From positions 62,001 to 126,000 of the forward strand of contig CANLWG010000011.1 in NCBI GenBank assembly GCA_947494715.1: a stretch of DNA of 64,000 nt, given 5' to 3'. The DNA comes from an uncultured Flavobacteriaceae bacterium. Lineage in GTDB: Bacteria > Bacteroidota > Bacteroidia > Flavobacteriales > Flavobacteriaceae. A model generated the notes under the pieces. The model was not told the DNA's origin, made no database searches, and saw only the letters and a program-made list of their open reading frames with translations. The position numbers and the translations under genes are program-made. Shown piece by piece: positions 14,811 through 49,169 of the stretch (the stretch's first letter is position 1; every line of letters starts with the position of its first letter).

Positions 14811-14819
14811 TATTTTTGT
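14811..14819 (+). promoter_or_regulatory. -7 box of the HYC/CC protein gene
   Basis: TATTTTTGT matches TAnnTTTG exactly and ends only four bases before the ATG at 14824, suggesting a leaderless or near-leaderless transcript for the first gene of the metal island. No -33 box at the usual distance. Confidence 0.4.
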
Positions 14820-14823
14820 ATTT

Positions 14824-15240
14824 ATGAAAGCGATTCTTTTTAAAGGAGTGTCCATTGCATTGGCTTTGTTTTTGCTTGCCTCCACTACCTCGTGGACGGT
14901 TGGCAAACACTATTGCATGGATCGTTTGGTAGATGTTTCGTTTTTTGCCCATGCCCAGGATTGTGGTATGGACATGGGATCTTCAATAGGCGATACTTCA
15001 CAAATAACAACAGAGGATTCCTGTTGTAGCGACCAACTTATCCTTGTAGAAGGGCAGGATCACCTAAAAATTTCCTTCAACGATATTGTTCTTGAACAGC
15101 AGCCTTTTTTAACTGCTTTTACATATTCCTATCTGGCCTTGTTCAAAGTTCAGGTAGAACGTCCAACATCCCACGAGCATTATCCTCCACCCCTCTTGTT
15201 TAAGGACATTCATGTTCTTGATCAGGTTTTCCTCATTTGA
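14824..15240 (+). CDS. HYC/CC/PP-motif small exported protein, putative metal-binding
   Basis: A 138-residue protein with a hydrophobic signal segment (residues 3-20) followed by Lys-His-Tyr-Cys (28-31), a Cys-Gly-Met-Asp-Met stretch (47-51), a Cys-Cys pair (67-68) and a late HYPPPLL. This set of motifs matches a small Bacteroidota family known to me only by the descriptive name HYC_CC_PP; no function is established. The Cys, His and Met pattern is what a copper or other soft-metal ligand set would look like, and the next gene encodes a heavy-metal-associated domain. Start at ATG 14824 rather than the upstream TTG at 14794 because it gives a normal signal peptide. Confidence 0.7.
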   Translation: MKAILFKGVSIALALFLLASTTSWTVGKHYCMDRLVDVSFFAHAQDCGMDMGSSIGDTSQITTEDSCCSDQLILVEGQDHLKISFNDIVLEQQPFLTAFTYSYLALFKVQVERPTSHEHYPPPLLFKDIHVLDQVFLI

Positions 15241-15368
15241 TTTTTTGTCATTTCCAAATAGGCAGCAATCTGTCTATTTTATCCCTAGTTTTTTTAAATA
15301 GGGATGCTAATCGAATTGTACTGAAAAGATTTCCCTTTTCTGGGAAATGGCAATAAATCTAAAACAAA

Positions 15369-16091
15369 ATGAAACATATTTATAAGATTACCGGAATGAC
15401 CTGTAGCGGATGCTCGGCTTCCGTTACTGAAAAACTATCCCAAGTTGACGGTATTACAAAGGTTGATGTGAATTTGCAAAAAGGCGAAGCGGAAATTTCC
15501 ATGGACACACATATTTCCATAAATGCATTAAAGTCCGCCCTGCCAGACAAATATGGCATCTCGGAACGGGAAAACCATACGGATGGTATAGTTATGGGCG
15601 GTACGGAGGAAAAGACAAAACTACAACAGTTGAGACCGTTATTTCTCATCTTCCTGTACCTCTTTGCAGCGGCCTTTTTGCTCAATTATAAAGAAGGGAA
15701 TATCCATTCGGCCATGTTGGATTTTATGGGTCTCTTTTACATTGTATTTAGCTTTTTTAAATTGTTGGACTTGAGAGGTTTCCCAGAGAGCTTTCGCATG
15801 TATGACCCGTTGGCCAAAGCAATACCTATCTATGGATGGATCTATCCCTTTATGGAATTGGCGCTTGGATTAATGTTCCTGATGCGGTATGCCGTAACCA
15901 CGGCGCTCATTGCAACTATAGTATTATTGGGGATTACAACCGTGGGAGTAACCAAGACGTTGCTCGACAAGAAAAGTATCCGATGTGCTTGTTTAGGTAC
16001 AGCTCTTAAGTTGCCTATGACAGAAGCGACATTTATTGAAAATGCCATTATGTTGGTCATGGCCGGTATCATGTTGACTCAAATTATTTAA
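15369..16091 (+). CDS. HMA domain fused to a MauE/DoxX-like membrane domain
   Basis: A 240-residue fusion. Residues 1-67 form a heavy-metal-associated domain with GMTCSGC (Cys12, Cys15). Residues about 77-240 contain four hydrophobic segments resembling the MauE family of membrane proteins, with a Cys-Ala-Cys at 206-208 in the position where that family carries a CxC motif. HMA domains bind Cu(I), Zn or Hg; MauE-type proteins are linked to thiol transfer or maturation. I infer metal transfer or reduction at the inner membrane. Two small hairpins lie in the 128-bp gap upstream; the TonB receptor gene starts ten bases downstream. Confidence 0.78.
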   Translation: MKHIYKITGMTCSGCSASVTEKLSQVDGITKVDVNLQKGEAEISMDTHISINALKSALPDKYGISERENHTDGIVMGGTEEKTKLQQLRPLFLIFLYLFAAAFLLNYKEGNIHSAMLDFMGLFYIVFSFFKLLDLRGFPESFRMYDPLAKAIPIYGWIYPFMELALGLMFLMRYAVTTALIATIVLLGITTVGVTKTLLDKKSIRCACLGTALKLPMTEATFIENAIMLVMAGIMLTQII

Positions 16092-16101
16092 AAGAGGAAG
16101 G

Positions 16102-18363
16102 ATGAAAAAATATGTGATACTTGCCGTTATGGTGATTCCTTTGTTTTCCCTTTCTCAAGATAAAATAGAGGGGATGGTCATGGAAGGGAATTCTAAAAAC
16201 GAGCATATTGGCCTACCGGGCGCCAATGTGTATTGGATGGGTTCCCAAATAGGGACGGTTACCAATGTAGAAGGTCTTTTTAGTATACCTTATTCCAAGG
16301 AATATAATAAATTGATTATTAGTTATGTAGGATTTCAATCGGATACGTTGACGATAAATTTGCCCAAGATGCTCCATCACACGCTGAGGCCGGCCAACGA
16401 ATTGGATGAAGTGGTAGTGGAAAAGAAACGGGATGCAGTCCAAAAAACCTACTTCAGCGCACAAAATGTAGTTACTGTAAATAGTGCAGAATTGTTAAAG
16501 GCCGCCTGTTGCAATCTTTCTGAAAGTTTTGAGACCAATCCGGCCATAGATGTCAATTTTAATGACGCTCTTACCGGTACCAAACAAATTCAGATGTTGG
16601 GATTAACGAGTCCTTATTTGTTGATTACCCAAGAAAACATTCCTATGATACGCGGGGCTTCGCAAGTTTATGGTTTGACCTTTATTCCTGGAACGTGGGT
16701 AGAAAGTATCCAGATTACCAAAGGGGCAGGAAGCGTAGTCAATGGATATGAAAGTATTTCTGGGCAGATCAATACCGAACTGGTGAAACCCTTCACGGAC
16801 AATCCTCTTTTTGTAAATGGCTATGCCAATAGAAATGGCCGCCTAGAACTCAATACCCATTTTAATCAAAAATTGACGGATAAATGGAGTACAGGATTTT
16901 ATGTACATGGGAATAGGAGGGATCAAAAGGAGGATCGGAATAATGACGGATTTTTGGATGCCCCTTTGACAAACCAGGTCAATGTGATGAACCGTTGGCA
17001 ATATCAGGATCCAGAAAAGGGCTGGGTAAGTTTTGTTAATTTTCGTTTTCTGAATGATGAAAAGCAGGTAGGGCAGACTAATTTCAAACCTACCTCTGAT
17101 GGACACACGACGAATACACCTGCTCTGAGCGAAGTCGAAGGGTGGGGCGGTGAAATCGATACCCGAAGGTTTGATTCCTCCCTAAAATTGGGTTATGTGT
17201 TTCCGGAGCTTCCATTTCAAAGTTTTGGGTTTCAGGCTTCCTATAGCATTCACAAACAAAATTCGTATTATGGATTCAATCGGTATGATATTGACCATGA
17301 AAGCATTTACTCCAATCTTATTTTCAATTCCATTCTTGGGGACACCCGGAACAAGTTCAAAGCAGGATTGACCTTTGCCTATGATTCTTATGATGAATTG
17401 GTCAACGCTCAAGATTATGAAAGGACAGATCATTCGGTCGGGGCATTTTTCGAATATAGCTATGACAATCTGGAAAAAGTTAGTCTAACGGCAGGACTAC
17501 GAGTAGACGATCATAATCGTTTGGGAACATTTATCACCCCCAGATTTCATATTCGCTATACACCCTGGGAAAAAGCAAGTTTTAGGGGATCTTTTGGAAG
17601 AGGCAAACGGGCGGCAAATATTTTTGCAGAGAACCAGCAGTTGTTCGCATCATCACGTCAGATTCAATTGCTGGACTCCAATGGCAGTGTTTACGGTCTG
17701 GACCCTGAGGACGCATGGAACTATGGGCTTAGTTTCATTCAAGGCTTTACCTTTTTGGATAGGCCTGGAAACGTAACCTTGGATTTCTATAGAACGGATT
17801 TCCGCAATCAGGTGGTAGTGGATTGGGAAAATCCTGATGAAATTTCCTTCTATAATTTGGAGGGGAAAAGTTATGCCAACAGCCTACAATTGGAGCTGAA
17901 CCATGAAATTTTAAACAATTTGGAACTACGCACCGCGTATAAATATTATGAGGTAGAGACCGATTATCGGTCAGGGAGGTTACAAAAGCCCTTATTGGCG
18001 CAACACCGTTTTTTTGCCAATTTGGGCTACCAGACTGAAATTGAAGAGAATGGGTCTCAATGGCGATTTGATTACACGTTACATACATTGGGTAAACAAC
18101 GCCTGCCGGATACATCCTCCAATCCCGAGCCATTTCGGTTGGAAGCATTTTCGGAGCCCTATAGTTTAATGAACGCCCAGGTGACCAAAGTTTTTTCTAA
18201 AAAGTTCGAAGTTTATTTGGGAGGTGAAAATTTGACTAATTTTACGCAAGGTGATCCAGTTTTGGGATCTCAAGATCCCTTTGGCCCATATTTTGATACC
18301 ACTATTGTGTTTGCACCGATTATGGGAAGAATGTTCTATACAGGCTTCCGGCTTAAACTATAA
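16102..18363 (+). CDS. TonB-dependent outer-membrane receptor with N-terminal carboxypeptidase-like domain
   Basis: A 753-residue outer-membrane active transporter. It has a signal peptide ending near residue 19, a carboxypeptidase-regulatory-like domain (about 22-95), a plug domain beginning around 112 with a Cys136-Cys137 pair in KAACCNLSESF, the plug motif SITKGAGSV-like QITKGAGSVVNGYESI, and a beta barrel to the C-terminus. Position between two HMA-domain genes points to a metal, probably copper, substrate; the CC pair also occurs in other Bacteroidota receptors of this type. Residues 340-347 (PALSEVEG) are encoded by a short dispersed repeat that appears inserted in frame. Confidence 0.88.
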   Translation: MKKYVILAVMVIPLFSLSQDKIEGMVMEGNSKNEHIGLPGANVYWMGSQIGTVTNVEGLFSIPYSKEYNKLIISYVGFQSDTLTINLPKMLHHTLRPANELDEVVVEKKRDAVQKTYFSAQNVVTVNSAELLKAACCNLSESFETNPAIDVNFNDALTGTKQIQMLGLTSPYLLITQENIPMIRGASQVYGLTFIPGTWVESIQITKGAGSVVNGYESISGQINTELVKPFTDNPLFVNGYANRNGRLELNTHFNQKLTDKWSTGFYVHGNRRDQKEDRNNDGFLDAPLTNQVNVMNRWQYQDPEKGWVSFVNFRFLNDEKQVGQTNFKPTSDGHTTNTPALSEVEGWGGEIDTRRFDSSLKLGYVFPELPFQSFGFQASYSIHKQNSYYGFNRYDIDHESIYSNLIFNSILGDTRNKFKAGLTFAYDSYDELVNAQDYERTDHSVGAFFEYSYDNLEKVSLTAGLRVDDHNRLGTFITPRFHIRYTPWEKASFRGSFGRGKRAANIFAENQQLFASSRQIQLLDSNGSVYGLDPEDAWNYGLSFIQGFTFLDRPGNVTLDFYRTDFRNQVVVDWENPDEISFYNLEGKSYANSLQLELNHEILNNLELRTAYKYYEVETDYRSGRLQKPLLAQHRFFANLGYQTEIEENGSQWRFDYTLHTLGKQRLPDTSSNPEPFRLEAFSEPYSLMNAQVTKVFSKKFEVYLGGENLTNFTQGDPVLGSQDPFGPYFDTTIVFAPIMGRMFYTGFRLKL
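17119..17142 (+). repeat. Short dispersed palindrome-like repeat inside the receptor gene
   Basis: The segment CTGAGCGAAGTCGAAGGG within these bases is the core of a short repeat found scattered in many flavobacterial and other genomes, usually between genes, and recognisable in translated form as PALSEVEG. Here it is read in frame inside the TonB receptor without interrupting it. I found no second copy in this window. Recognition is from memory of the motif. Confidence 0.6.
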
Positions 18364-18406
18364 TAATTTTGGGCGGAAAATCGTCCAGACCTAAAAAATC
18401 AAGAAT

Positions 18407-18763
18407 ATGAAAAAAGCAATAATATCTGCCTTTTTAATGCTAATATCCGTAACCGTTTTTGCCCAAGAAAAAAACAAAAAGTTGACCATGGAAGTCGATG
18501 GCAAGTGCGATATGTGTAAAATGCGCATAGAGAAAGCAGCTCTAGGTGTAAAGGGGGTAAAATATGCCTTGTGGGATATCCCTTCCCATCAATTGTCATT
18601 GATTATTGATGAACGCAAAACAGACCCCATGAAAATAAAGACCGCCATGGTACAGGTAGGTCATGACACCAAGGAACTTAAAGCTACCGAAGAAGCTTAT
18701 AATAGCGTACACCCCTGCTGTAAATATCGTGAAGATAACACGGACGACAGTAAACAGCATTGA
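18407..18763 (+). CDS. Exported heavy-metal-associated domain protein
   Basis: A 118-residue periplasmic protein: signal peptide to about Ala19, then an HMA fold with the CxxC site Cys34-Asp-Met-Cys37 and a second cysteine pair near the end (HPCC, residues 102-105) followed by a charged tail. HMA domains of this kind carry Cu(I) or similar soft metals. It lies 43 bp after the TonB receptor gene, as expected of a periplasmic carrier that receives the imported ion. The metal is inferred. Confidence 0.82.
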   Translation: MKKAIISAFLMLISVTVFAQEKNKKLTMEVDGKCDMCKMRIEKAALGVKGVKYALWDIPSHQLSLIIDERKTDPMKIKTAMVQVGHDTKELKATEEAYNSVHPCCKYREDNTDDSKQH

Positions 18764-18896
18764 TAAAGTGTTAGGGAAACACCATAATTCCTCTCTAAAA
18801 GTTAAATTTTGAGGTTTACCGCCCAATCTGGGTAGGTAAATGTAAGGACATCCCAATTTTTCGCACTAAACCCAATATCACTAAAGGTTGATATAG

Positions 18897-19862
18897 GTGC
18901 GGAAGGTCTTTTTTATAACCATTTTCATATTGGCGCAACAACTTTTTTCCCAAACTTGTTGTTCCGGAGGAGTTCCCCTATCCAATAATTTGGGATTGCC
19001 CAATGAGGGGAAAGGAGTCTGGATTCTTGGATTGAATTACGACTACAATAATTTGAATACCTTAAATGCAGGTGCCGATAAGCTTGATGATGATTCCCGA
19101 TTGCGTATTACAAATTCCATTTTAGCAGGTCTGGGCTATGCCTTTACGGACAGAATTTCCGTGGAAGCACTCTTCACATGGGTAAACCAGACACGTACCA
19201 TTACCCAATTTGGAAATGAGAGTCTTACCGAGACCACAGGCATTGGTGACGCTGTTTTCCTAGCGAAATATGCGATTCCGGATATTTTGGGAGAGCAGAC
19301 AGTCTTGAATTTAGGGTTAGGAACCAAAGCACCTCTTGGTAAATCCAATTTGACTACTGAAGAAGGATTTCAGTTGACCGCCGACCTACAACCAGGAAGC
19401 GGGGCTTGGGATATGATTGGATGGATGTCCATATCCAAAGAACTTAATTTTAGGCCCTCCGCTACTGTTTCAGGAAGTTTCACATATCGCCTAACGGGTA
19501 AAAACAATTCATATTTAAACAATACCTCTACTTATGAATTTGGCGATGTGATACAGGGCAATTTAGGGTACACTGATCAGTTTCTATTGTTCAATACTAT
19601 ATTTACCCCTGGAGTGGTATTCAAATACCGAAACGCTTCCGTGGACAGAATAGAAGATTCCGATTTGCCCAATACCGGAGGGGAATGGGTTTTTGTTAGG
19701 CCTGAACTTGGAGCTCAAATTACACCAAGTATTATACTTAGTACAAGATTGGAATTGCCCGTTTATAGCTATGTAGACGGCACACAGCTCACACCGACAT
19801 TGCGGTTCACAGCGGGAATCTCATTTATATTGAAAAAGAAAGAATTAAACATTTTAAACTAA
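18897..19862 (+). CDS. Outer-membrane beta-barrel-like protein starting with Cys-Cys
   Basis: A 321-residue exported protein with a signal peptide cleaved near residue 19 and a mature end of TCCSGG (Cys21, Cys22). The rest alternates short hydrophobic and polar stretches and ends in an aromatic-containing strand (FTAGISFILKK), as in outer-membrane barrels; homologues tend to be named transporter. The start is GTG at 18897; no ATG gives the signal peptide. It is followed after six bases by the DUF3179 gene. Role in metal transport or sensing is inferred from neighbours and the cysteine pair. Confidence 0.6.
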   Translation: MRKVFFITIFILAQQLFSQTCCSGGVPLSNNLGLPNEGKGVWILGLNYDYNNLNTLNAGADKLDDDSRLRITNSILAGLGYAFTDRISVEALFTWVNQTRTITQFGNESLTETTGIGDAVFLAKYAIPDILGEQTVLNLGLGTKAPLGKSNLTTEEGFQLTADLQPGSGAWDMIGWMSISKELNFRPSATVSGSFTYRLTGKNNSYLNNTSTYEFGDVIQGNLGYTDQFLLFNTIFTPGVVFKYRNASVDRIEDSDLPNTGGEWVFVRPELGAQITPSIILSTRLELPVYSYVDGTQLTPTLRFTAGISFILKKKELNILN

Positions 19863-19868
19863 TTTGCT

Positions 19869-20939
19869 ATGAAAAACACGTTATTTTTACTGGTTTGTGG
19901 CACACTTTTATTGTCATGTAGCTCATCGAGCACTCAAGAAACGGAACAAAATCCCGATGTTCAGGGAAATCCAAATCCTTCCTCCAATGAATGGAGCATT
20001 CCGGTATCCGAAGTTTTGGACGGTGGCCCCGGAAGAGACGGTATTCCCGCTTTGGAAAACCCCAATTTTGTAGCGGCAGAAAATGCCTCGGCTGTTTTGA
20101 GGGATACCGATCTAGTTATAGGTTTCAAAAATGGGAATGATATTCGCGCTTACCCCCATATTATTTTGGATTGGCACGAAATCGTCAATGATAATATAGA
20201 CGATACTTCCCTCGCGGTCACCTACTGCCCGCTTACAGGGACTGGAATCGGTTGGAATAGAATAATCGATGGAAGAGAAACGACTTTCGGAGTATCGGGT
20301 CTATTGTACCAGACCAACTTAGTTCCTTTTGATCGAGCTACATTGAGCAATTGGTCACAGATTTTGAACGAATCCGTAAATGGTAATCTTTTAGGAGAAA
20401 AGGCAGATTTGATTCCCCTGGTGGAAACCGATTGGGGAACATGGAAATCTATGTTTCCTTCTACCAAAGTTTTGAGTATAATCACCGGTTTCTCTAGAAC
20501 TTATGGGATTTACCCCTATAGGGATTACAGGACCAACAACGATTTCTTTATTTTTCCAACACCTAAGGATGATAGATTGCCATTAAAGGAACGTGTACAT
20601 GCTATAGTAGACAATGGGGATGCAAAGGCCTATCGTTTTGAAGATGTTGAGTCCTCAGGTGCAATCAAAGATTCCTTTAGGGGGAAAAATTATTTGGTGG
20701 TCGGCAATTCAGAATTTATTATCTCTTTTGAATTGAATGAATCACAGAATGCCTTGCAATTTGAATTTATTTTCAATGGTAATTCAGAAGCGATTGTGCA
20801 AGATACCAACGGTAACCAATGGAATGCTTTTGGGGAAGTCGTCTCTGGAACAGGTAACCCTTTAAAGGTGTCTTCCTCTTTTATGGGGTATTGGTTCTCT
20901 ATTCCGGCTTTTTATGAGACGGCGTTATTTGACGAATAA
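19869..20939 (+). CDS. DUF3179 domain lipoprotein
   Basis: A 356-residue lipoprotein (signal ending in LLSCSSSS). The DUF3179 domain fills most of it: IPALENPNF, the DIRAYPHIILDWHEIVND segment and VTYCPLTGTGIGW. Families I recall have CPLC at that point; here only Cys120 remains and the second cysteine is Thr, so a disulfide or CxxC metal site is not possible there. Function of DUF3179 is unknown. Being last in the cysteine-rich island, it may act in the same envelope process. A perfect palindromic terminator follows. Confidence 0.75.
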   Translation: MKNTLFLLVCGTLLLSCSSSSTQETEQNPDVQGNPNPSSNEWSIPVSEVLDGGPGRDGIPALENPNFVAAENASAVLRDTDLVIGFKNGNDIRAYPHIILDWHEIVNDNIDDTSLAVTYCPLTGTGIGWNRIIDGRETTFGVSGLLYQTNLVPFDRATLSNWSQILNESVNGNLLGEKADLIPLVETDWGTWKSMFPSTKVLSIITGFSRTYGIYPYRDYRTNNDFFIFPTPKDDRLPLKERVHAIVDNGDAKAYRFEDVESSGAIKDSFRGKNYLVVGNSEFIISFELNESQNALQFEFIFNGNSEAIVQDTNGNQWNAFGEVVSGTGNPLKVSSSFMGYWFSIPAFYETALFDE

Positions 20940-33594: not shown

Positions 33595-34959
33595 ATGAAG
33601 AAGCTATTGTTATCATCCATAGCGTTTGTTTTTTTGCTCACAAGTTGTGGGTCAAAAACCAAGGGAGAGCTAGTTGGAGCCAAAGGTAAAAAATGGTATC
33701 CCGAGAAGCCCTATGGAATGGAATTGATTCCCAGGGGATCTTTCATTATGGGTAAGAGCGAGGAAGACATGGCAAAGGTTCTCAATGCCCCCACCAAGAC
33801 GGTAACCGTACGTTCCTTTTATATGGATGACACGGAGATCACGAACAGTGAATATCGTCAGTTTGTGGAATGGGTAAAGGATTCCATTACCAGAACAAAA
33901 TTGGCCATTCTTGCCGATGAATTGGGACTAGGTCCAGAAGATGGGGGAATTGGGGAATATGCATTTAAGGATGCCGATACCTCCAAAGTGTCCGCATATG
34001 ACAAATATATGTTGGACAACTACTCCGGAATGGGAGAGACAGGATATGAAGGAAGGGCATTGAATAAGGACGAAGATCTTATTTGGGACGTTTCCGAATA
34101 TCCGGACGAGTACTATACCGAGATTATGGATTCTTTGTACATTCCCGAAGAAGAGTCCTATAATGGACAACGAAGTGTGGACGTTACTAAACTAAAGTAT
34201 AAGTATAGCTGGATGGATATTGAAGCCGCTGCTCGCGCTGCCAAAAAAGGTAAGGGTAGTAGAAAGGACTTTATCCGTCAGGAAGAATTGGAAATCTATC
34301 CGGATACGACGGTATGGATCAGGGATTTTGAATATTCCTATAACGAACCCATGCATAATGATTACTTTTGGCACGATGCTTATAGCGATTATCCCGTAGT
34401 CGGAGTTTCCTGGAAGCAGGCAAAGGCTTTTTGTAATTGGAGAACCAAGTTCAAGAATGATGATCAGAAAAGCCGTGGAAGACAATTTGTTAATCAATTT
34501 AGGTTGCCTACTGAAGCAGAATGGGAATACGCTGCCAGAGGTGGTATAGAAGGTGGAACCTACCCTTGGGGAGGCCCTTATGTAATTAGCGATACAGGTT
34601 GCTTCATGGCCAACTTTAAGCCACAACGGGGTGACTATGCAGCTGACGCCGCCTTGTACACCGTGGAGGCAAAGTCGTATGAGCCTAATGATTTTAACTT
34701 ATACAACATGGCCGGGAATGTATCCGAGTGGACCAACTCCAGCTATGATCCCGCGTCATATGATTACGTTTCTACTATGAATCCCAATGGTGGAGACGGT
34801 GGAAATGCAAGAAAGGTTATCCGTGGTGGATCTTGGAAGGATGTTGCATACTTCCTCCAAGTGAGTACCAGGGACTATGAGTATAAAGATTCCGCAAGGA
34901 GTTATATAGGTTTCCGAACAGTCCAGGATTATATGGGCGAAGAGGATTCAACACAATAG
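33595..34959 (+). CDS. gldK: Gliding motility/type IX secretion lipoprotein GldK
   Basis: Outer-membrane lipoprotein that forms the periplasmic ring of the type IX secretion system with GldN. The 454-residue product has lipobox LLTSC (Cys18) and a SUMF1-like fold (GMELIPRGSFIMGKS, FRLPTEAEWEYAARGG, YNMAGNVSEWTNSSY, IRGGSWKDV). The formylglycine-enzyme cysteines are absent, as expected for GldK. It begins the gldK-L-M-N run; 104 bp containing a palindrome separate it from gldL. Confidence 0.95.
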   Translation: MKKLLLSSIAFVFLLTSCGSKTKGELVGAKGKKWYPEKPYGMELIPRGSFIMGKSEEDMAKVLNAPTKTVTVRSFYMDDTEITNSEYRQFVEWVKDSITRTKLAILADELGLGPEDGGIGEYAFKDADTSKVSAYDKYMLDNYSGMGETGYEGRALNKDEDLIWDVSEYPDEYYTEIMDSLYIPEEESYNGQRSVDVTKLKYKYSWMDIEAAARAAKKGKGSRKDFIRQEELEIYPDTTVWIRDFEYSYNEPMHNDYFWHDAYSDYPVVGVSWKQAKAFCNWRTKFKNDDQKSRGRQFVNQFRLPTEAEWEYAARGGIEGGTYPWGGPYVISDTGCFMANFKPQRGDYAADAALYTVEAKSYEPNDFNLYNMAGNVSEWTNSSYDPASYDYVSTMNPNGGDGGNARKVIRGGSWKDVAYFLQVSTRDYEYKDSARSYIGFRTVQDYMGEEDSTQ

Positions 34960-34985
34960 AATTTATTTTAAACCTTAAATACAAA

Positions 34986-35003
34986 TCCCGATAGCTATCG
35001 GAA
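34986..35003. repeat. Palindromic repeat between gldK and gldL
   Basis: CCGATAGCTATCGG (34988-35001) is a perfect 14-bp palindrome. The sequence resembles a short dispersed palindrome seen between genes in many Bacteroidota genomes (from memory). In the gldKLMN transcript it forms a stem between the first two cistrons. Confidence 0.6.
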
Positions 35004-35063
35004 AACCATCAAATTTTAACCAAATACTTATTTTAACAGTAAACTTAAATTAAATTTTAAATT

Positions 35064-35714
35064 ATGGCACAGTCAAAATCAACAAAGAAATTGTTTAATA
35101 TGGCCTACGGCCTTGGGGCATCTGTAGTAATCATAGGTGCATTGTTCAAAATCCTTCACTGGGAGTTCGGACCTCTTTCTGGTGGTCTTCTTCTTGCAGT
35201 AGGTCTTATTACCGAAGCACTTATTTTTGCGATCAGTGCATTTGAACCAGTGGAAGATGAATACGATTGGTCTTTGGTTTATCCTGAATTAGGAGGTGGA
35301 GCTTCCAACGGAAAGAAAAACGAGTTGGCCGAGTTGAAAGAAGCGGAGACTTCTTTATCCAAAAAGCTGGATGACCTTTTAAAAGAGGCCGGTGTAGATG
35401 CCAATCTTATGGAAAGCTTGGGTGACAGTATCCGAAATTTTGAAGGAGCCGCCAAAGGTATCGCCCCTACAATGGATGCCATGGAGTCTACCAAGAAATA
35501 TTCCGATGAAATGGTTCAGGCCGCTGCCCAAATGGAATCTTTGAACAGTTTGTACAAAGTTCAATTGGAGAGCGCAAGTAAACAAGCTTCTGTTAACGAG
35601 GAAGTAGTACAGAACGCCAGTGCTCTTAAAGACCAAATGGAATCTTTGGCCACTAACCTTTCTTCATTGAATGGTGTTTACGGTGGAATGTTGACCGCCA
35701 TGAATAGAAACTAA
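35064..35714 (+). CDS. gldL: Type IX secretion motor protein GldL
   Basis: Inner-membrane stator-like subunit that, with GldM, uses the proton gradient to drive secretion and gliding. The 216-residue protein has two adjacent membrane helices (about residues 15-33 and 38-58). Polar residues known to matter in the motor are visible: Tyr15, Lys29, His32 and Glu51, two positions shifted from the Flavobacterium johnsoniae numbering I recall. The cytoplasmic tail is helical and Ala/Ser/Met-rich. Confidence 0.96.
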   Translation: MAQSKSTKKLFNMAYGLGASVVIIGALFKILHWEFGPLSGGLLLAVGLITEALIFAISAFEPVEDEYDWSLVYPELGGGASNGKKNELAELKEAETSLSKKLDDLLKEAGVDANLMESLGDSIRNFEGAAKGIAPTMDAMESTKKYSDEMVQAAAQMESLNSLYKVQLESASKQASVNEEVVQNASALKDQMESLATNLSSLNGVYGGMLTAMNRN

Positions 35715-35770
35715 TTGGATTGAATTCCTTAAACCCAAATCAGATTAATTAATAAATCCATTTAGAAAAT

Positions 35771-37333
35771 ATGGCTTCAGGAAAACAGACGCCACGTCAA
35801 AAGATGATCAACCTTATGTATTTGATCTTCATCGCGATGTTGGCCTTAAATATGAGCAAGGAAGTTCTTGCCGCGTTCGGAATTATGAACGAACGGATGG
35901 AGGCTTCTAATATAAAGACTACAGAGAGCAATCTTGCTTTCTTGGAAGGTCTTGAAACAAAAGCGTCAGAGGATTCGGCCAAGTACGAGAAACTCTACAA
36001 AGACGCTCAACAAATAAAAACCTTGTCCCAAGAGTATTATGATTATTTGGAGGGTCTTAAATCAGAGATGATGAAAGAAACCGAAGATCCAAAGGATTAT
36101 GCTGTAATGGACAAGTCCGATTATTTGGATCAAAAATTCTTTCAGGGAGATAACCTAGCCGCAGGTGGTAAGGAATTCATGAAACGGATTACGGATTACC
36201 GTACCCAAGTTGCGGCTATAGTTCCAGCAAGCATCAAGGAATCTATTGAAGCTCGTTTTGAGACTGGGGATGCTAATAATGGTAAAGTTCCAAAGCGCGA
36301 TGGTACCATGCAAGATTGGATCAATTACCACTATGAGGGCTTTCCACAAGTCGCTTCTTTGGCCAAATTGACTGCGCTTCAAGCCGATGTCAAGGCTACT
36401 GAGGAGGACGCTTTGAAATCCATGTTGGAAGGGGAGCTTACAAGTCAAGTTTCTTTAAAGAACTTTGCTACATCCCTTTTCGCAAGCAAGTCCGCTTTTT
36501 ATAGTGGTGAAAAATATGATGGTAAAATAATTATTAGCAAGACGGACAATTCGTCTACACCGGTCAAGGCAGAATTAACCTTGGATGGCAGAAAAATGAC
36601 TGACGGAAAAGACTATCGCCTGGAAGCAGGTGGAGTTAAATTGTTAATAGGAGCGGGTGCTCCTGGCGACCATACCGTAGAAGGTACGTTATATTTTATG
36701 CAGGATGGTGAAGAAATTGAGGTACCTGTAAAAAATGCCTTCGCTACGATCAGCAAACCTAACGCTGCTTTGATCGCTGCCGACAAGATGAATGTAGTTT
36801 ATCGTGGTGTTTCCAACCCCATGTCCATTTCTATTCCTGGGATACCCAACAATAAAGTTAGTGCATCTGCACCGGGTCTCACAAAAAGAAACGGTAGTAG
36901 TTATGTAATGAATCCCGGAAAAGGTAGAACCGTTAAGATAGTAGCTTCAGGTATCTTGCCTGATGGCCAACGTATCTCTACTCCTGCAACTTTTAGGATC
37001 AAGGATATTCCAAGGCCTTCGGGATCGGTTAGTAAGCAGACGGGTAGCCTAAAATTACCAAGGAGAAACTTGGAAATAGCTACGATCAGTGCCATGTTGG
37101 AAGATTTTGATTTTGACTTGAACCTTGCCGTTAGTGGATTTAAATTTAAAGTACCTGGACAGCCAACAGTAGCTGTTAATGGTAGTAAATTGGATTCTAG
37201 GGCCAAATCTGCCTTAAAGCGCGCAAAAAGAGGTGATGCCGTTCAGATATTCGATATCAACGCTTACATCACAAATAACAAGAGTTACAAATTGAAGAAA
37301 GTGTCTCCCGTAGTTGTGGAGATAACAAATTAA
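35771..37333 (+). CDS. gldM: Type IX secretion motor protein GldM
   Basis: Single-pass inner-membrane protein whose periplasmic domains span to the GldK/GldN ring. The 520-residue product has a short basic N-terminus, one membrane helix (about residues 13-32, NLMYLIFIAMLALNMSKEV) and a long periplasmic part with four beta-rich domains; the stretch VYRGVSNPMSISIPGIPNNKV marks the third domain. It lies 56 bp after gldL; a strong hairpin follows before gldN. Confidence 0.96.
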   Translation: MASGKQTPRQKMINLMYLIFIAMLALNMSKEVLAAFGIMNERMEASNIKTTESNLAFLEGLETKASEDSAKYEKLYKDAQQIKTLSQEYYDYLEGLKSEMMKETEDPKDYAVMDKSDYLDQKFFQGDNLAAGGKEFMKRITDYRTQVAAIVPASIKESIEARFETGDANNGKVPKRDGTMQDWINYHYEGFPQVASLAKLTALQADVKATEEDALKSMLEGELTSQVSLKNFATSLFASKSAFYSGEKYDGKIIISKTDNSSTPVKAELTLDGRKMTDGKDYRLEAGGVKLLIGAGAPGDHTVEGTLYFMQDGEEIEVPVKNAFATISKPNAALIAADKMNVVYRGVSNPMSISIPGIPNNKVSASAPGLTKRNGSSYVMNPGKGRTVKIVASGILPDGQRISTPATFRIKDIPRPSGSVSKQTGSLKLPRRNLEIATISAMLEDFDFDLNLAVSGFKFKVPGQPTVAVNGSKLDSRAKSALKRAKRGDAVQIFDINAYITNNKSYKLKKVSPVVVEITN

Positions 37334-37345
37334 TAAGTATTAAAA

Positions 37346-37373
37346 ACCGGGTGACCTTAATAGGTTACCCGGT
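37346..37373 (+). other. Intercistronic hairpin between gldM and gldN
   Basis: ACCGGGTGACC (37346-37356) pairs with GGTTACCCGGT (37363-37373), 11 bp with one G-T, six-base loop. It is followed only by AATTTTAAAA, a poor T run, so it is more likely a partial terminator or mRNA-stabilising stem than a full stop. Confidence 0.65.
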
Positions 37374-37393
37374 AATTTTAAAAGGATTAAACA

Positions 37394-38296
37394 ATGAATT
37401 GGAAGAATGTTTTATTAATCGCAGCCCTTGGTTTGTTGCCCGTATCCATAATGGCCCAGGCGAATATATTGAACGCCAAAAAACCTGAGGATATTGGAAA
37501 AAAGACCGAAGCACAAAAAACGATGGACAATGACGCTCCCTTGGAATATGGTTATGTGGACGATAGGGATATCCTTTGGTCAAAGACCGTGTGGGAGGTA
37601 GTAGATTTGGACGAGCGTGTAAACTTTCCATTATACTATCCAATAGATACCGTTGATATTGGTGCCGATAGAAGATCCTTGTATGATGTTTTAATGAAGA
37701 ACATTAAAAATGGTAAACTTCAGGATGTGTATGTAGATTCCTATTTTACCGAAAAAAGAAATTTTGGGGATCTGACAGCTACCTTGCAAAAAGTAGATAC
37801 TACGGACTATGGTTATGAGCAATTGAATGCTGGTGAAGAACTCTCTCAAGAATTTGTAATCCGTAGAGATCTTACAGCTGCGGATATTGAAGAATACCGT
37901 ATTAAGGGAATCTGGTATTTTGATAAGCGTCAAGGTGAATTGAAATACCGTCTATTGGGACTTGCGCCAGTAGCTCCCGATGTTAACTTTATCGATGACG
38001 AATCCATGGATCCCGGGGATGCCAAAGTAGAATTGTTTTGGGTATGGTACCCAGGTGCACGGCAAATTTTGCACGATGCCAAGGTGTTCAACCAAAGAAA
38101 TTCCGCCCAGCCCATATCTTTTGATATGCTCTTGAACGCAAGAAGATTCAATGGCGTTATCTATCGTGAGGATAATGTTCATGGAGACCGCGAAATTAAT
38201 GATTACATTTCCGAAAACGCCCTGTTCCAATTGTTGGAGGCCAATCGTATAAAAGAGGTCATCCGAGATAGGGAGCAGGACATGTGGGCTTACTAA
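37394..38296 (+). CDS. gldN: Gliding motility/type IX secretion protein GldN
   Basis: Periplasmic ring partner of GldK. The 300-residue product has a signal peptide ending at about Ala22 (VSIMAQA) and the family's DDRDILWSKTVWEVVDLDERVNFPLY opening, TVDI, and a VELFWVWYPGAR segment. It closes the gldK-L-M-N operon and is followed by a terminator. Confidence 0.95.
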   Translation: MNWKNVLLIAALGLLPVSIMAQANILNAKKPEDIGKKTEAQKTMDNDAPLEYGYVDDRDILWSKTVWEVVDLDERVNFPLYYPIDTVDIGADRRSLYDVLMKNIKNGKLQDVYVDSYFTEKRNFGDLTATLQKVDTTDYGYEQLNAGEELSQEFVIRRDLTAADIEEYRIKGIWYFDKRQGELKYRLLGLAPVAPDVNFIDDESMDPGDAKVELFWVWYPGARQILHDAKVFNQRNSAQPISFDMLLNARRFNGVIYREDNVHGDREINDYISENALFQLLEANRIKEVIRDREQDMWAY

Positions 38297-42076: not shown

Positions 42077-42958
42077 ATGATGAAAAAGCTATTTTGTTTT
42101 TTGATGATAACCTTACTAAGTGCGAATGGAATCTTCGCCGAGGTAACCCGAAAAGAGAAAAAGGCACTGATAGATCTGTATGAGAGTACCAACGGCACGG
42201 AATGGATAAAAAAGTGGAATCTGGAGGAACCCGTATCTACTTGGCGAGGTGTAAAAGTGGAGAAGGGTCATGTGATTGAAATAAACCTGTTTCGAAATAA
42301 CCTTAATGGTGTTATTCCGGAGAGCATTGGAGATTTGGGCTATCTTAGGATTCTTAACCTTGCATTCAATACTATTACCGGGGAATTACCGGGTACTATA
42401 GTCTCACTGAATCGGTTAAGAGTACTGAAATTAGAAATGAATAGGATAAAAGGAGAACTCCCGGAAACCATTGGTGAAATGGAAAGCTTGGAGGAGATTA
42501 GCCTGTTCAATAATTTTTTGACCGGGAGTATTCCGGAGAGCATAGGCAGTATTAAGAACTTAAAAATACTTAACCTTTCCAGCAACAGTATTAAAGGAAG
42601 GATTCCAAACGCTTTGGGAGATTTGACCCAGTTGGAAAGTTTGGGTCTTTTTGAAAACGCTTTGGAAGGAAGTATTCCGCCGGAAATTGGAAAATTGGTA
42701 AAAATGAAGGAATTGGTATTGGCCAACAATCAATTGGCAGGTGAAATTCCCGCTGAGTTTGCCCAATTGGCCAATCTTGAAATATTTCAAATTCAAAACA
42801 ATAAGTTCGATTCCTTTGAAAACCTACAGATGATGGATTCCCGTCAGTTTCTGGTATTCGATTATGATAAGGAAGAATTTGATCCTAATTTCAAGGACAT
42901 CAATTTCAGTAAGACAAGAATGGCGGACACAAAATTTGAAGATGTTGAGGATGAGTAG
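42077..42958 (+). CDS. Exported plant-type leucine-rich-repeat protein 1
   Basis: A 293-residue secreted protein: signal peptide to about Ala21, then a cap resembling plant LRRNT domains (ALIDLYESTNGTEWIKKWN..W.GV), about eight 24-residue repeats of the plant-specific type (LxxLxLxxNxLxGxIPxxIGxL), and a tail ending DTKFEDVEDE. Probably a surface or periplasmic binding protein; no partner is known. The next gene is a clear paralogue with the same cap, tail and terminator. A start three bases later is equally possible. Confidence 0.82.
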   Translation: MMKKLFCFLMITLLSANGIFAEVTRKEKKALIDLYESTNGTEWIKKWNLEEPVSTWRGVKVEKGHVIEINLFRNNLNGVIPESIGDLGYLRILNLAFNTITGELPGTIVSLNRLRVLKLEMNRIKGELPETIGEMESLEEISLFNNFLTGSIPESIGSIKNLKILNLSSNSIKGRIPNALGDLTQLESLGLFENALEGSIPPEIGKLVKMKELVLANNQLAGEIPAEFAQLANLEIFQIQNNKFDSFENLQMMDSRQFLVFDYDKEEFDPNFKDINFSKTRMADTKFEDVEDE

Positions 42959-42987
42959 TGATTTATAATTTTTTAGTTAGTTTGGTT

Positions 42988-43017
42988 AAAGGGGTGCAAC
43001 TATGCATCCCTTTTTTT
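42988..43017 (+). terminator. Terminator after LRR gene 1
   Basis: AAAGGGGTGCA (42988-42998) pairs with TGCATCCCTTT (43003-43013, one G-T) and runs into seven T residues. Confidence 0.82.
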
Positions 43018-43197
43018 GTTTGAAATTTGCAGAGACACAGCCGATTACATAAGAAATCGAGAAAAAAAACGTTAAAAATAAACAATGTAACGAATAAAGA
43101 CAATACATGCCAAATCCACATTGGCAAAAAAGAGCCATAACCAAGATATGGAACTATCAAAACGTTTTACTATTATCAACCCTAAATCCTTCTAATT

Positions 43198-44082
43198 ATG
43201 AATAGAAAACTACTTTATACCACATTTCTTTTCTTCCTATTATTTCAAACCCTTGCTATAGCCCAAATACCCGAAAATGAAAAATCTGCTCTTATAGACC
43301 TTTACACCGCTACGAACGGAGATTCTTGGATCATTAAATGGAATCTTAAATCGGATGTTCGTCAATGGTATGGTGTAGATATTACTGAGGGTCATGTCGT
43401 TGGTCTTAACCTATATAAAAATAATTTGACCGGGAGGATTCCACCAAGTTTAAAAAACTTGAAAAGGCTTGAAGTTCTTGATCTTGCGTTTAATGCCTTG
43501 GAGGGAGAGTTGCCGACCACATTGGCCGAGCTTACCGAACTAAAGGTTTTAAAGCTTGAGATGAACAGTTTAAAAGGTGAGCTTCCCAAAAGTTTTACTG
43601 CAATGTCAAATTTGGAAGAACTTATCCTGTTCGACAATAAGCTTGGGGGAAGTATTCCAAAAGGTATTGGTGAGGTCAAAAACCTTAAGATTCTAGATCT
43701 TTCCAACAATTATCTGCAAGGAAGCCTACCCGAAAGTATTGGGGAACTTTCCAATTTAACAAATTTGGGGCTTTCCGGTAATAAGCTGGAAGGTGAAATA
43801 AATATTGGCTTTGGTAATATGCAAAACCTGTCCGAGTTGTTGCTGTCCTTTAATAACTTCAAAGGGACTGTACCCAAGGGCATCGATTCTTTGCCATTCT
43901 TGGAACTGGTTCAACTTCAAGGAAACGATTTCACTTCTTTCGAAAATCTTCAGGACATACAAAGTAAAAACCTCATTGTATTTGATACCGATGATTTGAA
44001 ACTGAACCTTAAATATCGAGAATTATTTGACATCGATGCACCAGTGGCAAATACAAAATTTGAGGACGTCGAAGATGAGTAA
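43198..44082 (+). CDS. Exported plant-type leucine-rich-repeat protein 2
   Basis: A 294-residue paralogue of the preceding LRR gene. It has a signal peptide (cleaved near Ala22), the same ALIDLYTATNGDSWIIKWN cap, eight plant-type repeats and an identical last eight residues (KFEDVEDE). It differs mainly in the outward-facing repeat positions. The downstream sequence including the hairpin is also duplicated, showing that a unit of about 1.1 kb was copied in tandem. Confidence 0.82.
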   Translation: MNRKLLYTTFLFFLLFQTLAIAQIPENEKSALIDLYTATNGDSWIIKWNLKSDVRQWYGVDITEGHVVGLNLYKNNLTGRIPPSLKNLKRLEVLDLAFNALEGELPTTLAELTELKVLKLEMNSLKGELPKSFTAMSNLEELILFDNKLGGSIPKGIGEVKNLKILDLSNNYLQGSLPESIGELSNLTNLGLSGNKLEGEINIGFGNMQNLSELLLSFNNFKGTVPKGIDSLPFLELVQLQGNDFTSFENLQDIQSKNLIVFDTDDLKLNLKYRELFDIDAPVANTKFEDVEDE

Positions 44083-44244: not shown

Positions 44245-44709
44245 GTGAAAACAAAAGGGATAGCAATTGATTTTGAGAACTCAATAGCCCCATGGATTGG
44301 GAGAACTTCCAAAATAGTGGATTATTATCTCCAGGAGGCCATGCAACGCCATGGTCTGGATTTGAGCAAGGAGCAGATGATAGTTTTGAAAAAGCTCCAT
44401 GAACATGATGACCTTAATCAAAACGAACTGGCCCTTCTCACCTACCGCGACAAGTCTTCCCTAGCCCGTCTGCTTTCCAAAATGGAACAAAAAAACTACA
44501 TATTCCGTAGACAAAATGGGGAGGATAAACGAATCAATGATGTTTTTTTGACGGAACAGGGCAAATCAACCTATCAAAAGACGCGACCCGTAATCAAGGA
44601 AATCATTGATATGATGGAACAGAATATTTCCCAGGAGGAGAAACAGCACATCATCAAAATTCTAAAGAAAGTACAGCAAAACTTTATTACTGAAACTGCA
44701 TTACTTTAA
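44245..44709 (+). CDS. MarR family transcriptional regulator
   Basis: A 154-residue winged-helix regulator: dimer helices at both ends, recognition region NELALLTYRDKSSLARLLSKME and the wing RRQNGEDKRIND with the conserved D-R pair. It starts with GTG at 44245. It stands eight bases before the RND adaptor gene, in the same transcript, and a perfect palindrome lies upstream; so it probably represses itself and the pump and is released by a pump substrate. Confidence 0.9.
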   Translation: MKTKGIAIDFENSIAPWIGRTSKIVDYYLQEAMQRHGLDLSKEQMIVLKKLHEHDDLNQNELALLTYRDKSSLARLLSKMEQKNYIFRRQNGEDKRINDVFLTEQGKSTYQKTRPVIKEIIDMMEQNISQEEKQHIIKILKKVQQNFITETALL

Positions 44710-44717
44710 CCAACATT

Positions 44718-45851
44718 ATGAGAAAAATCATCCTATCCCTTTTAGGCCTTTTGTTATTAGTAGGGGCCTATTTTGGAATGAAAAAAATAATTGCCAGTAA
44801 AAAGAACTTTAGACCACCGGCGGAGAAAGTGGTAAAAACGGTGTTTACCAAAGTTGTGACCAATGGCACCGTTCCTATTGTAGTTCCCGCGAATGGAAAT
44901 CTTATGGCCAAGAGAAGAGTAGAGCTCTATTCCGAGGTACAGGGCGTGTTTCGGGGAGGCAGTAAGTTGTTCAAGGCGGGTCAAAAGTATCGTAAAGGTG
45001 AAACCATTATCCGAATCGATGCCTCGGAGTATGCGGCTTCCGTACAATCCGCCAAAAGTAATCTGTACAATGAACTTACCTCGATTATGCCAGATCTACG
45101 TCTGGATTATCCCGATATTTTTCCAAAATGGGAGGCTTATATAACTGGTTTTGACTTATCCAAAAGCACCCCGGAGTTACCAGAAATGATCTCGGAAAAG
45201 GAAAAATTCTTTATTTCCGGGCGTGGGATACTCACAAGCTATTATAACGTCAAGAATTTGGAACAACGATTGTCGAAGTATAAGATTACGGCACCCTATA
45301 ACGGCATACTCACAGAGGCTTTGGTGACGGAGGGTACCTTGGTACGTTCAGGGCAAAAATTAGGTGAATTTATCAATACCGAAGTATATGAATTGCAGGT
45401 AGCGGTGAGTAAAACCTTTAGTGATTTGCTAAAAATTGGTGAAAAGGTTACCCTTGCCAATCTGGACAAAACAAAAACCTATACAGGGAAGGTTGCAAGA
45501 ATTAACGGTAGAATAGATCAGGCTTCCCAAACCATTACCGCCTTTATTGAAGTTGCTGATAATACGCTAAGGGAAGGGATGTATCTAGAGGCAAACTTGG
45601 ATGCCAAAGAAGAGACCAATGCCATTGAAATAGATAGGGGCCTTCTCTTGGAGAACAACCAAATTTTTGTGGTTCGTGATTCCATTCTTGATTTGATCGA
45701 TGTGAAGCCGGTATATTTTACTGATAAAAAAGTAGTTGTTAAGGAAATACCCGATGGTACCATTATCATGGCCAAACCCTTGATCGGGGCATACACTGGT
45801 ATGGCGGTTAAAATTTACAAGGACAATCAAGCTAACGTCCAGGGATCATGA
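44718..45851 (+). CDS. RND efflux periplasmic adaptor (HlyD/MFP family)
   Basis: The 377-residue periplasmic bridge between the inner-membrane pump and the outer-membrane channel. It has one N-terminal membrane segment (residues 4-22), the barrel-sandwich halves (YSEVQGVFRGG and KITAPYNGILTEALVTEGTLVRSGQ) and a beta-barrel domain (KVARINGRIDQASQTI). The helical hairpin between the two lipoyl halves is short. Its stop overlaps the pump start by four bases (ATGA). Confidence 0.9.
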   Translation: MRKIILSLLGLLLLVGAYFGMKKIIASKKNFRPPAEKVVKTVFTKVVTNGTVPIVVPANGNLMAKRRVELYSEVQGVFRGGSKLFKAGQKYRKGETIIRIDASEYAASVQSAKSNLYNELTSIMPDLRLDYPDIFPKWEAYITGFDLSKSTPELPEMISEKEKFFISGRGILTSYYNVKNLEQRLSKYKITAPYNGILTEALVTEGTLVRSGQKLGEFINTEVYELQVAVSKTFSDLLKIGEKVTLANLDKTKTYTGKVARINGRIDQASQTITAFIEVADNTLREGMYLEANLDAKEETNAIEIDRGLLLENNQIFVVRDSILDLIDVKPVYFTDKKVVVKEIPDGTIIMAKPLIGAYTGMAVKIYKDNQANVQGS

Positions 45852-48800: not shown

Positions 48801-49165
48801 CGATAGCCGGATTGGCCCCATTGATGTTGGAAACCAGTCGCCAGGCCCAGTTTTTGATTCCAATGGCCATATCCATAGCCTACGGTATCGGTTTTGCCAC
48901 GGTACTGACCTTGGTGATGCTTCCATTGTTCTTATCGTTCAGTAACCGCATTAAAACGAGTACCAAATGGCTTGCAACTGGAAGTGAAGTGAGTAAAGAA
49001 GAAGTAGAACGCGCCATTAAGGAACAAAAAGAAGAGGCCCTGATGGGTACGAGTCGCATCCAAGACCTTAATGGTAAGCAAAAGGACATTTCCGAACAGG
49101 AACTTTTGGAAACAGCTGAAATTTATAAAGAAAGTACCTCAGAGACTACTATAGAGAACCCATAA
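45848..49165 (+). CDS. RND family efflux pump, inner-membrane permease (AcrB/HAE-1 type)
   Basis: A 1105-residue proton-driven drug or lipid exporter with the typical 1+5+1+5 membrane layout and two large periplasmic loops. The TM4 segment GILVDDGIVIAENIY near residue 396 carries the acidic pair of the proton relay; the second half has GVIALIGIMVNDGLVLIGKFN. A charged cytoplasmic tail of about 60 residues (SKEEVERAIKEQKEE) extends beyond the last helix. It overlaps the adaptor gene and is followed four bases later by the TolC-type gene. Confidence 0.93.
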   Translation: MRKVIAYFIKYHVAVDVIVFAFVIFGIVGALSLKSSFFPLTESKNVFISVTYPGASPQEVEEGIVLKIEDNLKGLEGVDRVTSTSRENSGSINVEIEKGRDIDFMLLEVKNAVDRVPTFPGGMEPLIVSKLEAVRPTISFAVSGENIPLATLKQIGRQIENDIRAIDGVSQIDITGYPEEEIEIAVNENNLLAYNISFTEVATAVGNANILVTGGNIKTNAEEYLIRANNRSYYGDELSNIVVRADASGRTVRLKDVAEVRDRFSETPNATYFNGNLSVNATITSTNTEDLIGSAEKVKEYMQEFNEKYDNVRLDVVRDLSTTLTQRTQLLTENAIMGMTLVLIFLSLFLNTRLAFWVAFGLPISFLGMFIFAGFFNVTINVLSLFGMIIVIGILVDDGIVIAENIYQHSEKGKSPIQAAIDGTMEVIPPIVSAIITTLLAFSIFLFLDGRIGDFFGEVSVIVILTLVVSLVEALIILPAHLAHSKALRALDKKPKTGIARAFAKLRVFNQAGESAMAWMRDKLYSPVLKFTLQNKLLTFALFAGALMLTFGSIGGGIIRTSFFPRIASDRVQVDLLMPNGTNEIVTDSIISLIEEKSEIVNQEFTEKYLKGTDKVLFENVIKNVGPGSSAATLVINLLPGEERPDAVRSDLITNRLRELVGPIIGAESVIYGSGGNFGGDPVSVSLLGNNIQELKAAKSELKTALENNAALKDVADNDPAGIKEIRLELKENAYLLGLDLRTLMNQVRAGFFGAQAQRFQRGQDEIRVWVRYNRENRSSIIDLDEMRIVTPSGSRVPLNEIANYTIERGDVAINRLEGQREIQISADLKDIKATSPVDIMNEIRTEIMPEIQSKYPTVTASYEGQNRERNKLFDSLNFVGLSVLALIYLTIAFTFRSFSQPLMLLLLVPFSLTAVAWGHWIHDFSINILSMLGVIALIGIMVNDGLVLIGKFNGNLRAGMDFDNAIFEAGRSRFRAIFLTSITTIAGLAPLMLETSRQAQFLIPMAISIAYGIGFATVLTLVMLPLFLSFSNRIKTSTKWLATGSEVSKEEVERAIKEQKEEALMGTSRIQDLNGKQKDISEQELLETAEIYKESTSETTIENP

Positions 49166-49169
49166 CCGA

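What the first reader, a model, noticed from the sequence alone, without database searches (positions are those of the whole stretch)
14824..20939. Six-gene cysteine-pair island: candidate soft-metal uptake and handling system
Six consecutive plus-strand genes carry soft-metal ligands in almost every product: KHYC and CC (14824), CSGC plus a membrane CAC (15369), CC in the TonB plug (16102), CDMC and a C-terminal HPCC (18407), CC at the mature N-terminus (18897). The order forms a full path: outer-membrane receptor, periplasmic carrier, inner-membrane HMA-MauE fusion. The HMA families are known to bind Cu(I) and similar ions; that the island works as one unit, and that it imports or relays copper, is inference. 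The DUF3179 and HYC-type families have no assigned role.
Basis: partly seen in the sequence, partly recalled or inferred. Interest (0 to 1): 0.72.

Follow-up and report, generated by a model that had tools for sequence, protein, structure and literature searches.

The report
Copper-handling gene island in flavobacteria
A conserved neighbourhood of genes in marine flavobacteria and other Bacteroidota looks like a dedicated system that takes copper in through the outer membrane and passes it between proteins, and it contains what may be a new type of membrane copper carrier.

Summary
In detail: six plus-strand genes at 14824-20939, with thiol pairs in five of the six products. Comparison splits them. 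The core is HYC_CC_PP, a TonB receptor with an invariant CC in the plug, and a secreted HMA-like protein. In 80 named flavobacterial loci the HMA gene directly follows the receptor in 78 (the other two end at a contig edge) and HYC lies upstream in 72. The receptor-HMA pair persists across the phylum (54 of 77 genomes); HMA is fused to the receptor's N-terminus in five loci. HMA-MauE occupies a slot that CopA, the copper ATPase, fills elsewhere (28 and 8 of 80 loci, never both). The barrel plus DUF3179 is a separate cassette, in 4 of 80. HMA-MauE's CAC is ordinary for MauE, but M217, E224, M228, M231 and M235, on one face of its last helix, are almost absent from other MauE (0-1 of 29). Most likely: a copper island in which the receptor delivers copper to a periplasmic HMA chaperone and HMA-MauE moves Cu(I) across the inner membrane. 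Metal and direction are inferred, not shown.

The parts
14824..15240 (+). HYC_CC_PP family protein (138 aa, N-terminal hydrophobic stretch), putative periplasmic soft-metal binder
   Evidence: NF047658, 108 bits vs cut-off 28; the 30 homologue loci that one search returned lie beside an RND pump (18), the CC receptor (11) or CopA (1)
15369..16091 (+). HMA-MauE fusion (240 aa): cytoplasmic CxxC domain plus five long predicted helices, CAC loop, Met/Glu face on the last helix
   Evidence: PF00403 and PF07291; residues; AF2 model mean pLDDT 83, CAC loop 205-213 below 50; 28 of 80 related islands
16102..18363 (+). TonB-dependent receptor (753 aa) with CarboxypepD_reg-like N-terminal domain and invariant CC 136-137 in the plug
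   Evidence: PF13715, PF07715, PF00593; CC 31 of 31 in loci not chosen by pattern, H269 30 of 31, window copy included
18407..18763 (+). secreted HMA-like protein (118 aa) with CxMC and C-terminal CC, putative periplasmic chaperone
   Evidence: PF00403 sub-threshold hit (20.5 bits, cut-off 24.8), supported by profile hits to CopA/CopZ domains; directly downstream of the receptor in 78 of 80
18897..19862 (+). outer-membrane barrel (321 aa, GTG start) with CC at the mature N-terminus; accessory cassette gene 1
   Evidence: no family match itself; its 54%-identical relative in L125 matches PF13557
19869..20939 (+). DUF3179 protein with lipoprotein-like start (356 aa); accessory cassette gene 2
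   Evidence: PF11376, 275 bits; follows the barrel in G079, L127, L129, L130, L137 and L153 as well
14811..14818 (+). putative promoter -7 element (TAxxTTTG type) a few bases before the HYC start codon
   Evidence: conserved in an alignment of ten upstream regions; the name of the element is recalled, and no transcript was seen

Best explanation
A copper-handling island. The TonB receptor takes copper (free or chelated) through the outer membrane, with the plug CC as a thiol site on the route. The secreted HMA-like protein, fused to the receptor's periplasmic end in some genomes, receives it in the periplasm. HYC_CC_PP is a small periplasmic copper binder shared with CusA-type efflux. HMA-MauE carries Cu(I) across the inner membrane between its cytoplasmic HMA/CAC sites and a Met/Glu-lined last helix; its direction is open, and replacement by CopA tilts slightly towards export into the periplasmic pool. 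The barrel and DUF3179 are an optional add-on. Shown: gene linkage, fusions, conserved residues. Inferred: metal, transport, direction.
For: Linkage in named loci and across the phylum. HMA domain fused to the receptor's N-terminal, periplasmic side in five of 111 distinct receptors, and a CC-barrel-HMA fusion in L114. CopA in or beside the HMA-MauE slot in 8 of 80 islands, never together with HMA-MauE; all eight have CPC and DKTGT; CopA confirmed by Pfam in L085. CopA HMA domains nest inside the HMA-MauE HMA clade (70 columns only). HYC beside CusA-like RND (18 of 30), CC receptor (11 of 30) or CopA (1 of 30). Plug CC in 31 of 31 receptors vs 0 of 5 other TonB receptors in fetched loci. Met/Glu residues specific to HMA-MauE on one helical face. 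14 of 14 AraC-type regulators with an NMVCxRC start in the fetched loci lie within four genes of these families, six directly beside HMA-MauE (the loci were chosen for such genes, so this is not an unbiased count).
Against: No metal, expression or phenotype data. HMA families also bind Hg, Zn, Cd and Ag, and the profile of the secreted HMA also finds zinc-ATPase and MerP domains, more weakly. The OprC motif CxxxM-HxM is absent (CxxxM in 0 of 111 receptors). The plug was not modelled (pLDDT about 25 for residues 99-232), so CC geometry is unknown. 44 of 80 islands have neither HMA-MauE nor CopA, so an inner-membrane step is not part of the core. 23 of 77 phylum receptors have no listed HMA within 1 kb on the same contig. 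HMA-MauE occurs in only 18 of 296 phylum genomes at E <= 1e-25. Close association with efflux genes fits resistance as well as uptake. No entry named OprC is among the 14 solved relatives found by profile (whether OprC is in that library was not checked).
Confidence: 0.55

Rival explanations
1. A copper/silver tolerance island: HYC, secreted HMA and HMA-MauE buffer and expel Cu(I), and the receptor is a copper-responsive accessory.
For: HYC beside CusA-like RND in 18 of 30 loci; HMA-MauE next to HYC and RND in L077 and L078, with AraC-type regulators beside them; CopA inside some islands and a CusB-like adaptor in L130.
Against: The most constant part is a TonB receptor, a class known for import (recalled); 44 of 80 islands have neither HMA-MauE nor CopA.
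Confidence: 0.25
2. The island handles another soft metal or a metal chelate (zinc, silver, mercury, or a copper-binding metallophore) rather than copper ions.
For: HMA models for Hg and Zn also match, below cut-off; a TonB paralogue in the own genome lies beside a ZIP-like and an MntR/DtxR-like gene (those two names are judged by eye, not searched).
Against: CopA and CusA-type neighbours; thiol and thioether ligands suit Cu(I)/Ag(I).
Confidence: 0.13
3. HMA-MauE is a thiol-redox protein in the DsbD/VKOR manner that keeps the CC motifs of the other products reduced, not a metal carrier. (This concerns one part and can hold together with the other accounts.)
For: MauE is annotated as a redox-associated family (recalled); the CxC is shared by 29 of 29 other MauE.
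Against: The HMA domain and the subfamily-specific Met/Glu face are not expected for a redox protein; by loop charges the CxC lies on the cytoplasmic side.
Confidence: 0.2

Closest known systems
OprC/NosA, TonB-dependent copper receptors (PMC8610252, abstract and passages seen)
   Same: TonB receptor, a cysteine in the plug, copper context
   Different: no CxxxM (0 of 111), no solved entry named OprC among profile hits, only 12 Met in the window receptor; carries a periplasmic HMA partner or fusion
Pcu operon of Bradyrhizobium and TccA of Caulobacter (PMC12617631, passages seen)
   Same: copper-linked TonB receptor with periplasmic chaperones and, in Pcu, a cytoplasmic-membrane protein
   Different: PcuC/PccA-type chaperones in the passages read, where no HYC_CC_PP or HMA-MauE was mentioned; homology to TccA or PcuB not tested
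MerTP / MerT-CopZ fusions
   Same: HMA domain joined to a small cysteine-containing membrane protein
   Different: the match is to the HMA part only (residues 4-58, 39.5 bits vs cut-off 180); the membrane part is MauE
MauE (PF07291)
   Same: family and CxC
   Different: M116, M120, M217, E224, M228, M231, M235 are 0-1 of 29 in other MauE
CopA P1B-ATPase
   Same: occupies the same slot; cytoplasmic HMA and a membrane CxC; Met/Glu residues on the CopA path are recalled
   Different: HMA-MauE has no ATPase domains
Bizionia argentinensis copper gene list (PMC11213822, passages seen)
   Same: a flavobacterium with a copper TonB receptor proposed
   Different: that receptor is reported to have CxxxM-HxM; ours does not. 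MauE and DUF3179 occur 0 times in the main text; HYC was not looked for there

Membership tests
HYC_CC_PP (NF047658) | curated score cut-off 28 bits | tested here: met
   108.3 bits over positions 2-131 of 131
TonB-dependent transporter | plug and beta-barrel domains | tested here: met
   PF07715 33.1 and PF00593 82.2 bits, both over cut-off; barrel strands modelled
OprC/NosA copper receptor | CxxxM-HxM site | tested here: not met
   absent in the window receptor; CxxxM in 0 and HxM in 10 of 111 receptors
HMA domain (secreted protein 18407) | Pfam cut-off 24.8 bits | tested here: not met
   20.5 bits; yet an alignment profile finds CopA and CopZ domains at E 4e-19 and 2e-10: HMA-like by profile, not by the curated score
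HMA domain (15369) | Pfam cut-off and CxxC | tested here: met
   45.2 bits; C12 and C15 in 54 of 54
MauE (PF07291) | Pfam cut-off 27 bits and CxC | tested here: met
   66.4 bits; CxC aligned with 29 of 29
Cu(I) transporter (functional claim for HMA-MauE) | measured Cu(I) transport | not testable with these tools
   sequence pattern only
DUF3179 (PF11376) | Pfam cut-off 27 bits | tested here: met
   275.3 bits
Phenol_MetA_deg barrel (PF13557), for 18897 | Pfam cut-off 22 bits | tested here: inconclusive
   window protein: no hit at E 0.01; 54%-identical relative 32.9 bits

The most novel reading that the evidence does not exclude
HMA-MauE is a new class of Cu(I) transporter built on the MauE scaffold: a cytoplasmic HMA domain feeds a CAC site and a Met-Glu ladder through one helix, standing in for CopA without ATP, inside an envelope-spanning copper route with its own CC-plug receptor.
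Probability: 0.33. Interest if true: 0.82.

Novelty: new variant of a known kind. Interest (0 to 1): 0.62.

Why it matters
How Gram-negative bacteria take up copper is poorly known (stated in the abstract of PMC8610252). The island gives a testable outer-membrane receptor subfamily found in several families of Bacteroidota, a genomic context for HYC_CC_PP, and named residues in a possible new copper carrier. In the open-licence PubMed Central papers searched, none holds the name HYC_CC_PP, none holds MauE with heavy metal, TonB and copper, none holds TonB-dependent, copper, Bacteroidetes and heavy-metal-associated domain together, and of five listings with MauE, copper and methionine none reads as a MauE copper carrier by title and abstract opening (not opened). 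Subscription journals were not searched.

Tried and rejected
Six-gene unit: rejected, because the barrel and DUF3179 cassette is rare and separable. OprC membership: rejected. COX1 co-occurrence: uninformative, since 150 of 158 genomes have COX1. Receptor model: barrel good, plug unusable, so no CC-site geometry is claimed. No Rfam match, no PADLOC match, no tRNA in the window, and one trivial 17-base tandem repeat. The upstream alignment showed only a promoter-like element and a TTTCGTTAA-like block of unknown meaning. Gene calling in my scripts is greedy and ATG-only: it shortened the GTG-start barrel in the window (one search lists it as a 149-aa ORF; the Fisher counts use the true six proteins) and may miss short HYC genes (8 of 80 without HYC). 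Helical-face odds (0.006 for four residues; 6e-5 for five) are post hoc. Distances come from match tables that I copied by coordinate; one search did not list its weakest matches and my list left out some further HMA matches, so linkage counts are lower bounds. The 80 loci are the best 80 of 584, found partly through a CC pattern, so only the 31 receptors count for CC conservation, and those include the window's own copy. The count of 15 full-length HMA-MauE is my cut of the 64 genomes with any match.
Full report
What is there. The window lies at G000:C11:62001-126000 of a 5.97 Mb genome. Six plus-strand genes run from 14824 to 20939 between a minus-strand block (GAF-type gene, purH, mreB) and a minus-strand groL (these names are judged from the sequence, not searched in a library). 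They encode HYC_CC_PP, HMA-MauE, a TonB receptor, a secreted HMA-like protein, a barrel without family match, and DUF3179.

The core. In 148 genomes of the order, receptor matches at E <= 1e-40 occur in 104, secreted-HMA matches at E <= 0.001 in 93, HYC in 50, and, by my reading of the match ranges, full-length HMA-MauE in 15. Receptor and HMA lie within 1 kb in 75 of the 104; HYC lies within 3 kb of the receptor in 31 of 44 genomes that have both. At phylum level (296 genomes) 77 have a receptor at E < 1e-130, above a gap in the scores; 54 of these have a listed HMA within 1 kb, 26 of them outside the window's family and the order sample. A scan of named genomes kept 80 loci, the best of 584 confirmed relatives. 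In these, HMA directly follows the receptor in 78, HYC is among the five genes upstream in 72, HMA-MauE is within three genes in 28, CopA in 8, both in none; within the fetched flanks purH is upstream in 69 and groL downstream in 62. Contig ends explain both HMA misses and at least two of the eight HYC misses (L135, L171).

Fusions. HMA domains are fused to the receptor's N-terminus in five of 111 distinct receptors (L117, L118 with two domains, L126, L269, L270), on the side that lies in the periplasm. In L114 a CC-barrel carries a C-terminal HMA domain.

The slot. In G109 the order is HYC, HMA-MauE, receptor, HMA, groL; in G133 it is HYC, AraC-type regulator, CopA, receptor, HMA, then groL. 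CopA there has E1-E2 ATPase, HMBD and HMA domains; the eight large proteins counted as CopA all have CPC and DKTGT. A tree of HMA domains places the CopA domains inside the HMA-MauE clade under starred branches, on only 70 columns.

HYC_CC_PP. The 30 loci that one search returned (of 73 places copied from it) were inspected: 18 have a CusA-like RND gene, 11 the CC receptor, and 1 CopA within the 1.5 kb flanks. The own genome has three HYC genes, two of them beside RND genes that are 81% identical to each other; one of these was confirmed as ACR_tran.

HMA-MauE. The CxC is common to 29 of 29 other MauE proteins examined, whereas M116, M120, M217, E224 and M228 (0 of 29) and M231 and M235 (1 of 29 each) are not. 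Across 54 distinct HMA-MauE, window copy excluded, down to 30% identity: C12, C15, C206, C208, E224, M228 and M231 54 of 54; M120, M217 and M235 53; M116 52. The model (mean pLDDT 83) has five long helices after the HMA domain; the CAC loop is poorly modelled. M217, E224, M228, M231 and M235 fall within 60 degrees on the last helix (helical wheel, not the model's coordinates, which were not available). Loop charges put the HMA domain and the CAC on the cytoplasmic side. That this lines a copper path is inference.

The receptor. CC 136-137 is present in 31 of 31 receptors not selected by pattern, H269 in 30, M165 in 22. None of 111 receptors has CxxxM, and no entry named OprC is among the 14 solved relatives found by profile. 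A paralogue in the own genome, at G000:C9 (27% identity), has a CNVC plug and metal-type neighbours judged by eye.

The cassette. Barrel and DUF3179 sit side by side in the window, G079, L127, L129, L130, L137 and L153; L128 has DUF3179 without a called barrel. In G079 there is no receptor match at E <= 1e-40. DUF3179 relatives occur in 3 of 148 order genomes. Distant barrel relatives lie within 3 kb of a secreted HMA in 10 genomes besides the window's, out of 31 genomes with a barrel match. Of those 10, the barrel start was read in eight: seven have CC just after the signal, the eighth ORF (L110) was called short. In two of these loci the gene between HMA and barrel was checked and has a Por secretion tail (L107, L108).

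Regulators. Fourteen AraC-type proteins starting with an NMVCxRC motif were found in the fetched loci; all fourteen lie within four genes of RND, CopA, HMA-MauE, TonB receptor, HMA or HYC genes, and six directly beside HMA-MauE. Four were checked by Pfam and are HTH_18/AraC. The loci were chosen for copper-type genes, so this is not an unbiased count. None lies in the window's island.

Reading. The best account is copper handling: outer-membrane uptake to a periplasmic HMA, with an inner-membrane Cu(I) step by HMA-MauE or CopA where present. Uptake rests on the class of the receptor and the side on which HMA is fused; tolerance remains a serious rival because of the RND and CopA links. Known relatives in function are OprC (PMC8610252), and TccA and Pcu (PMC12617631); of both papers I saw the abstract or parts of it and passages. 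The copper receptor named for Bizionia (PMC11213822, passages) is reported with the OprC motif and so differs from this one. A zntR study in Riemerella (PMC11960050, passages) lists TonB receptors by locus tag; I could not tell whether this receptor is among them.

Noticed in passing
window 33595-38296: Four consecutive genes that look like gldKLMN of the gliding/type IX secretion machinery (named by eye from the protein starts, not searched).
   Followed up: no
window 42077-44082: Two neighbouring genes with similar starts (leucine-rich-repeat-like by eye), probably a duplication.
   Followed up: no
window 44341-50564: MarR-like gene followed by adaptor, RND-pump-sized and TolC-like genes (by eye), almost without cysteine.
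   Followed up: no
L254 9055-12902 (G000:C9): Paralogous TonB receptor with CNVC in the plug, divergent from an MntR/DtxR-like regulator and a ZIP-like gene (by eye).
   Followed up: partly
L107 8878-9657, L108 7638-8426: Gene between secreted HMA and CC-barrel in distant families has a type IX secretion tail as its only domain over the Pfam cut-off.
   Followed up: partly
L068, L069 (G000:C22, G000:C11): Two further HYC_CC_PP copies in the own genome, each directly upstream of a CusA-like RND gene; one set also has a P-type ATPase with two HMA domains.
   Followed up: yes
L136 5169-7426: A Maribacter island carries three extra genes (unknown 256 aa, 209 aa with two HMA stretches, NHL propeller 277 aa) between HYC and CopA; L138, L151 and L152 show genes of the same sizes there.
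   Followed up: partly
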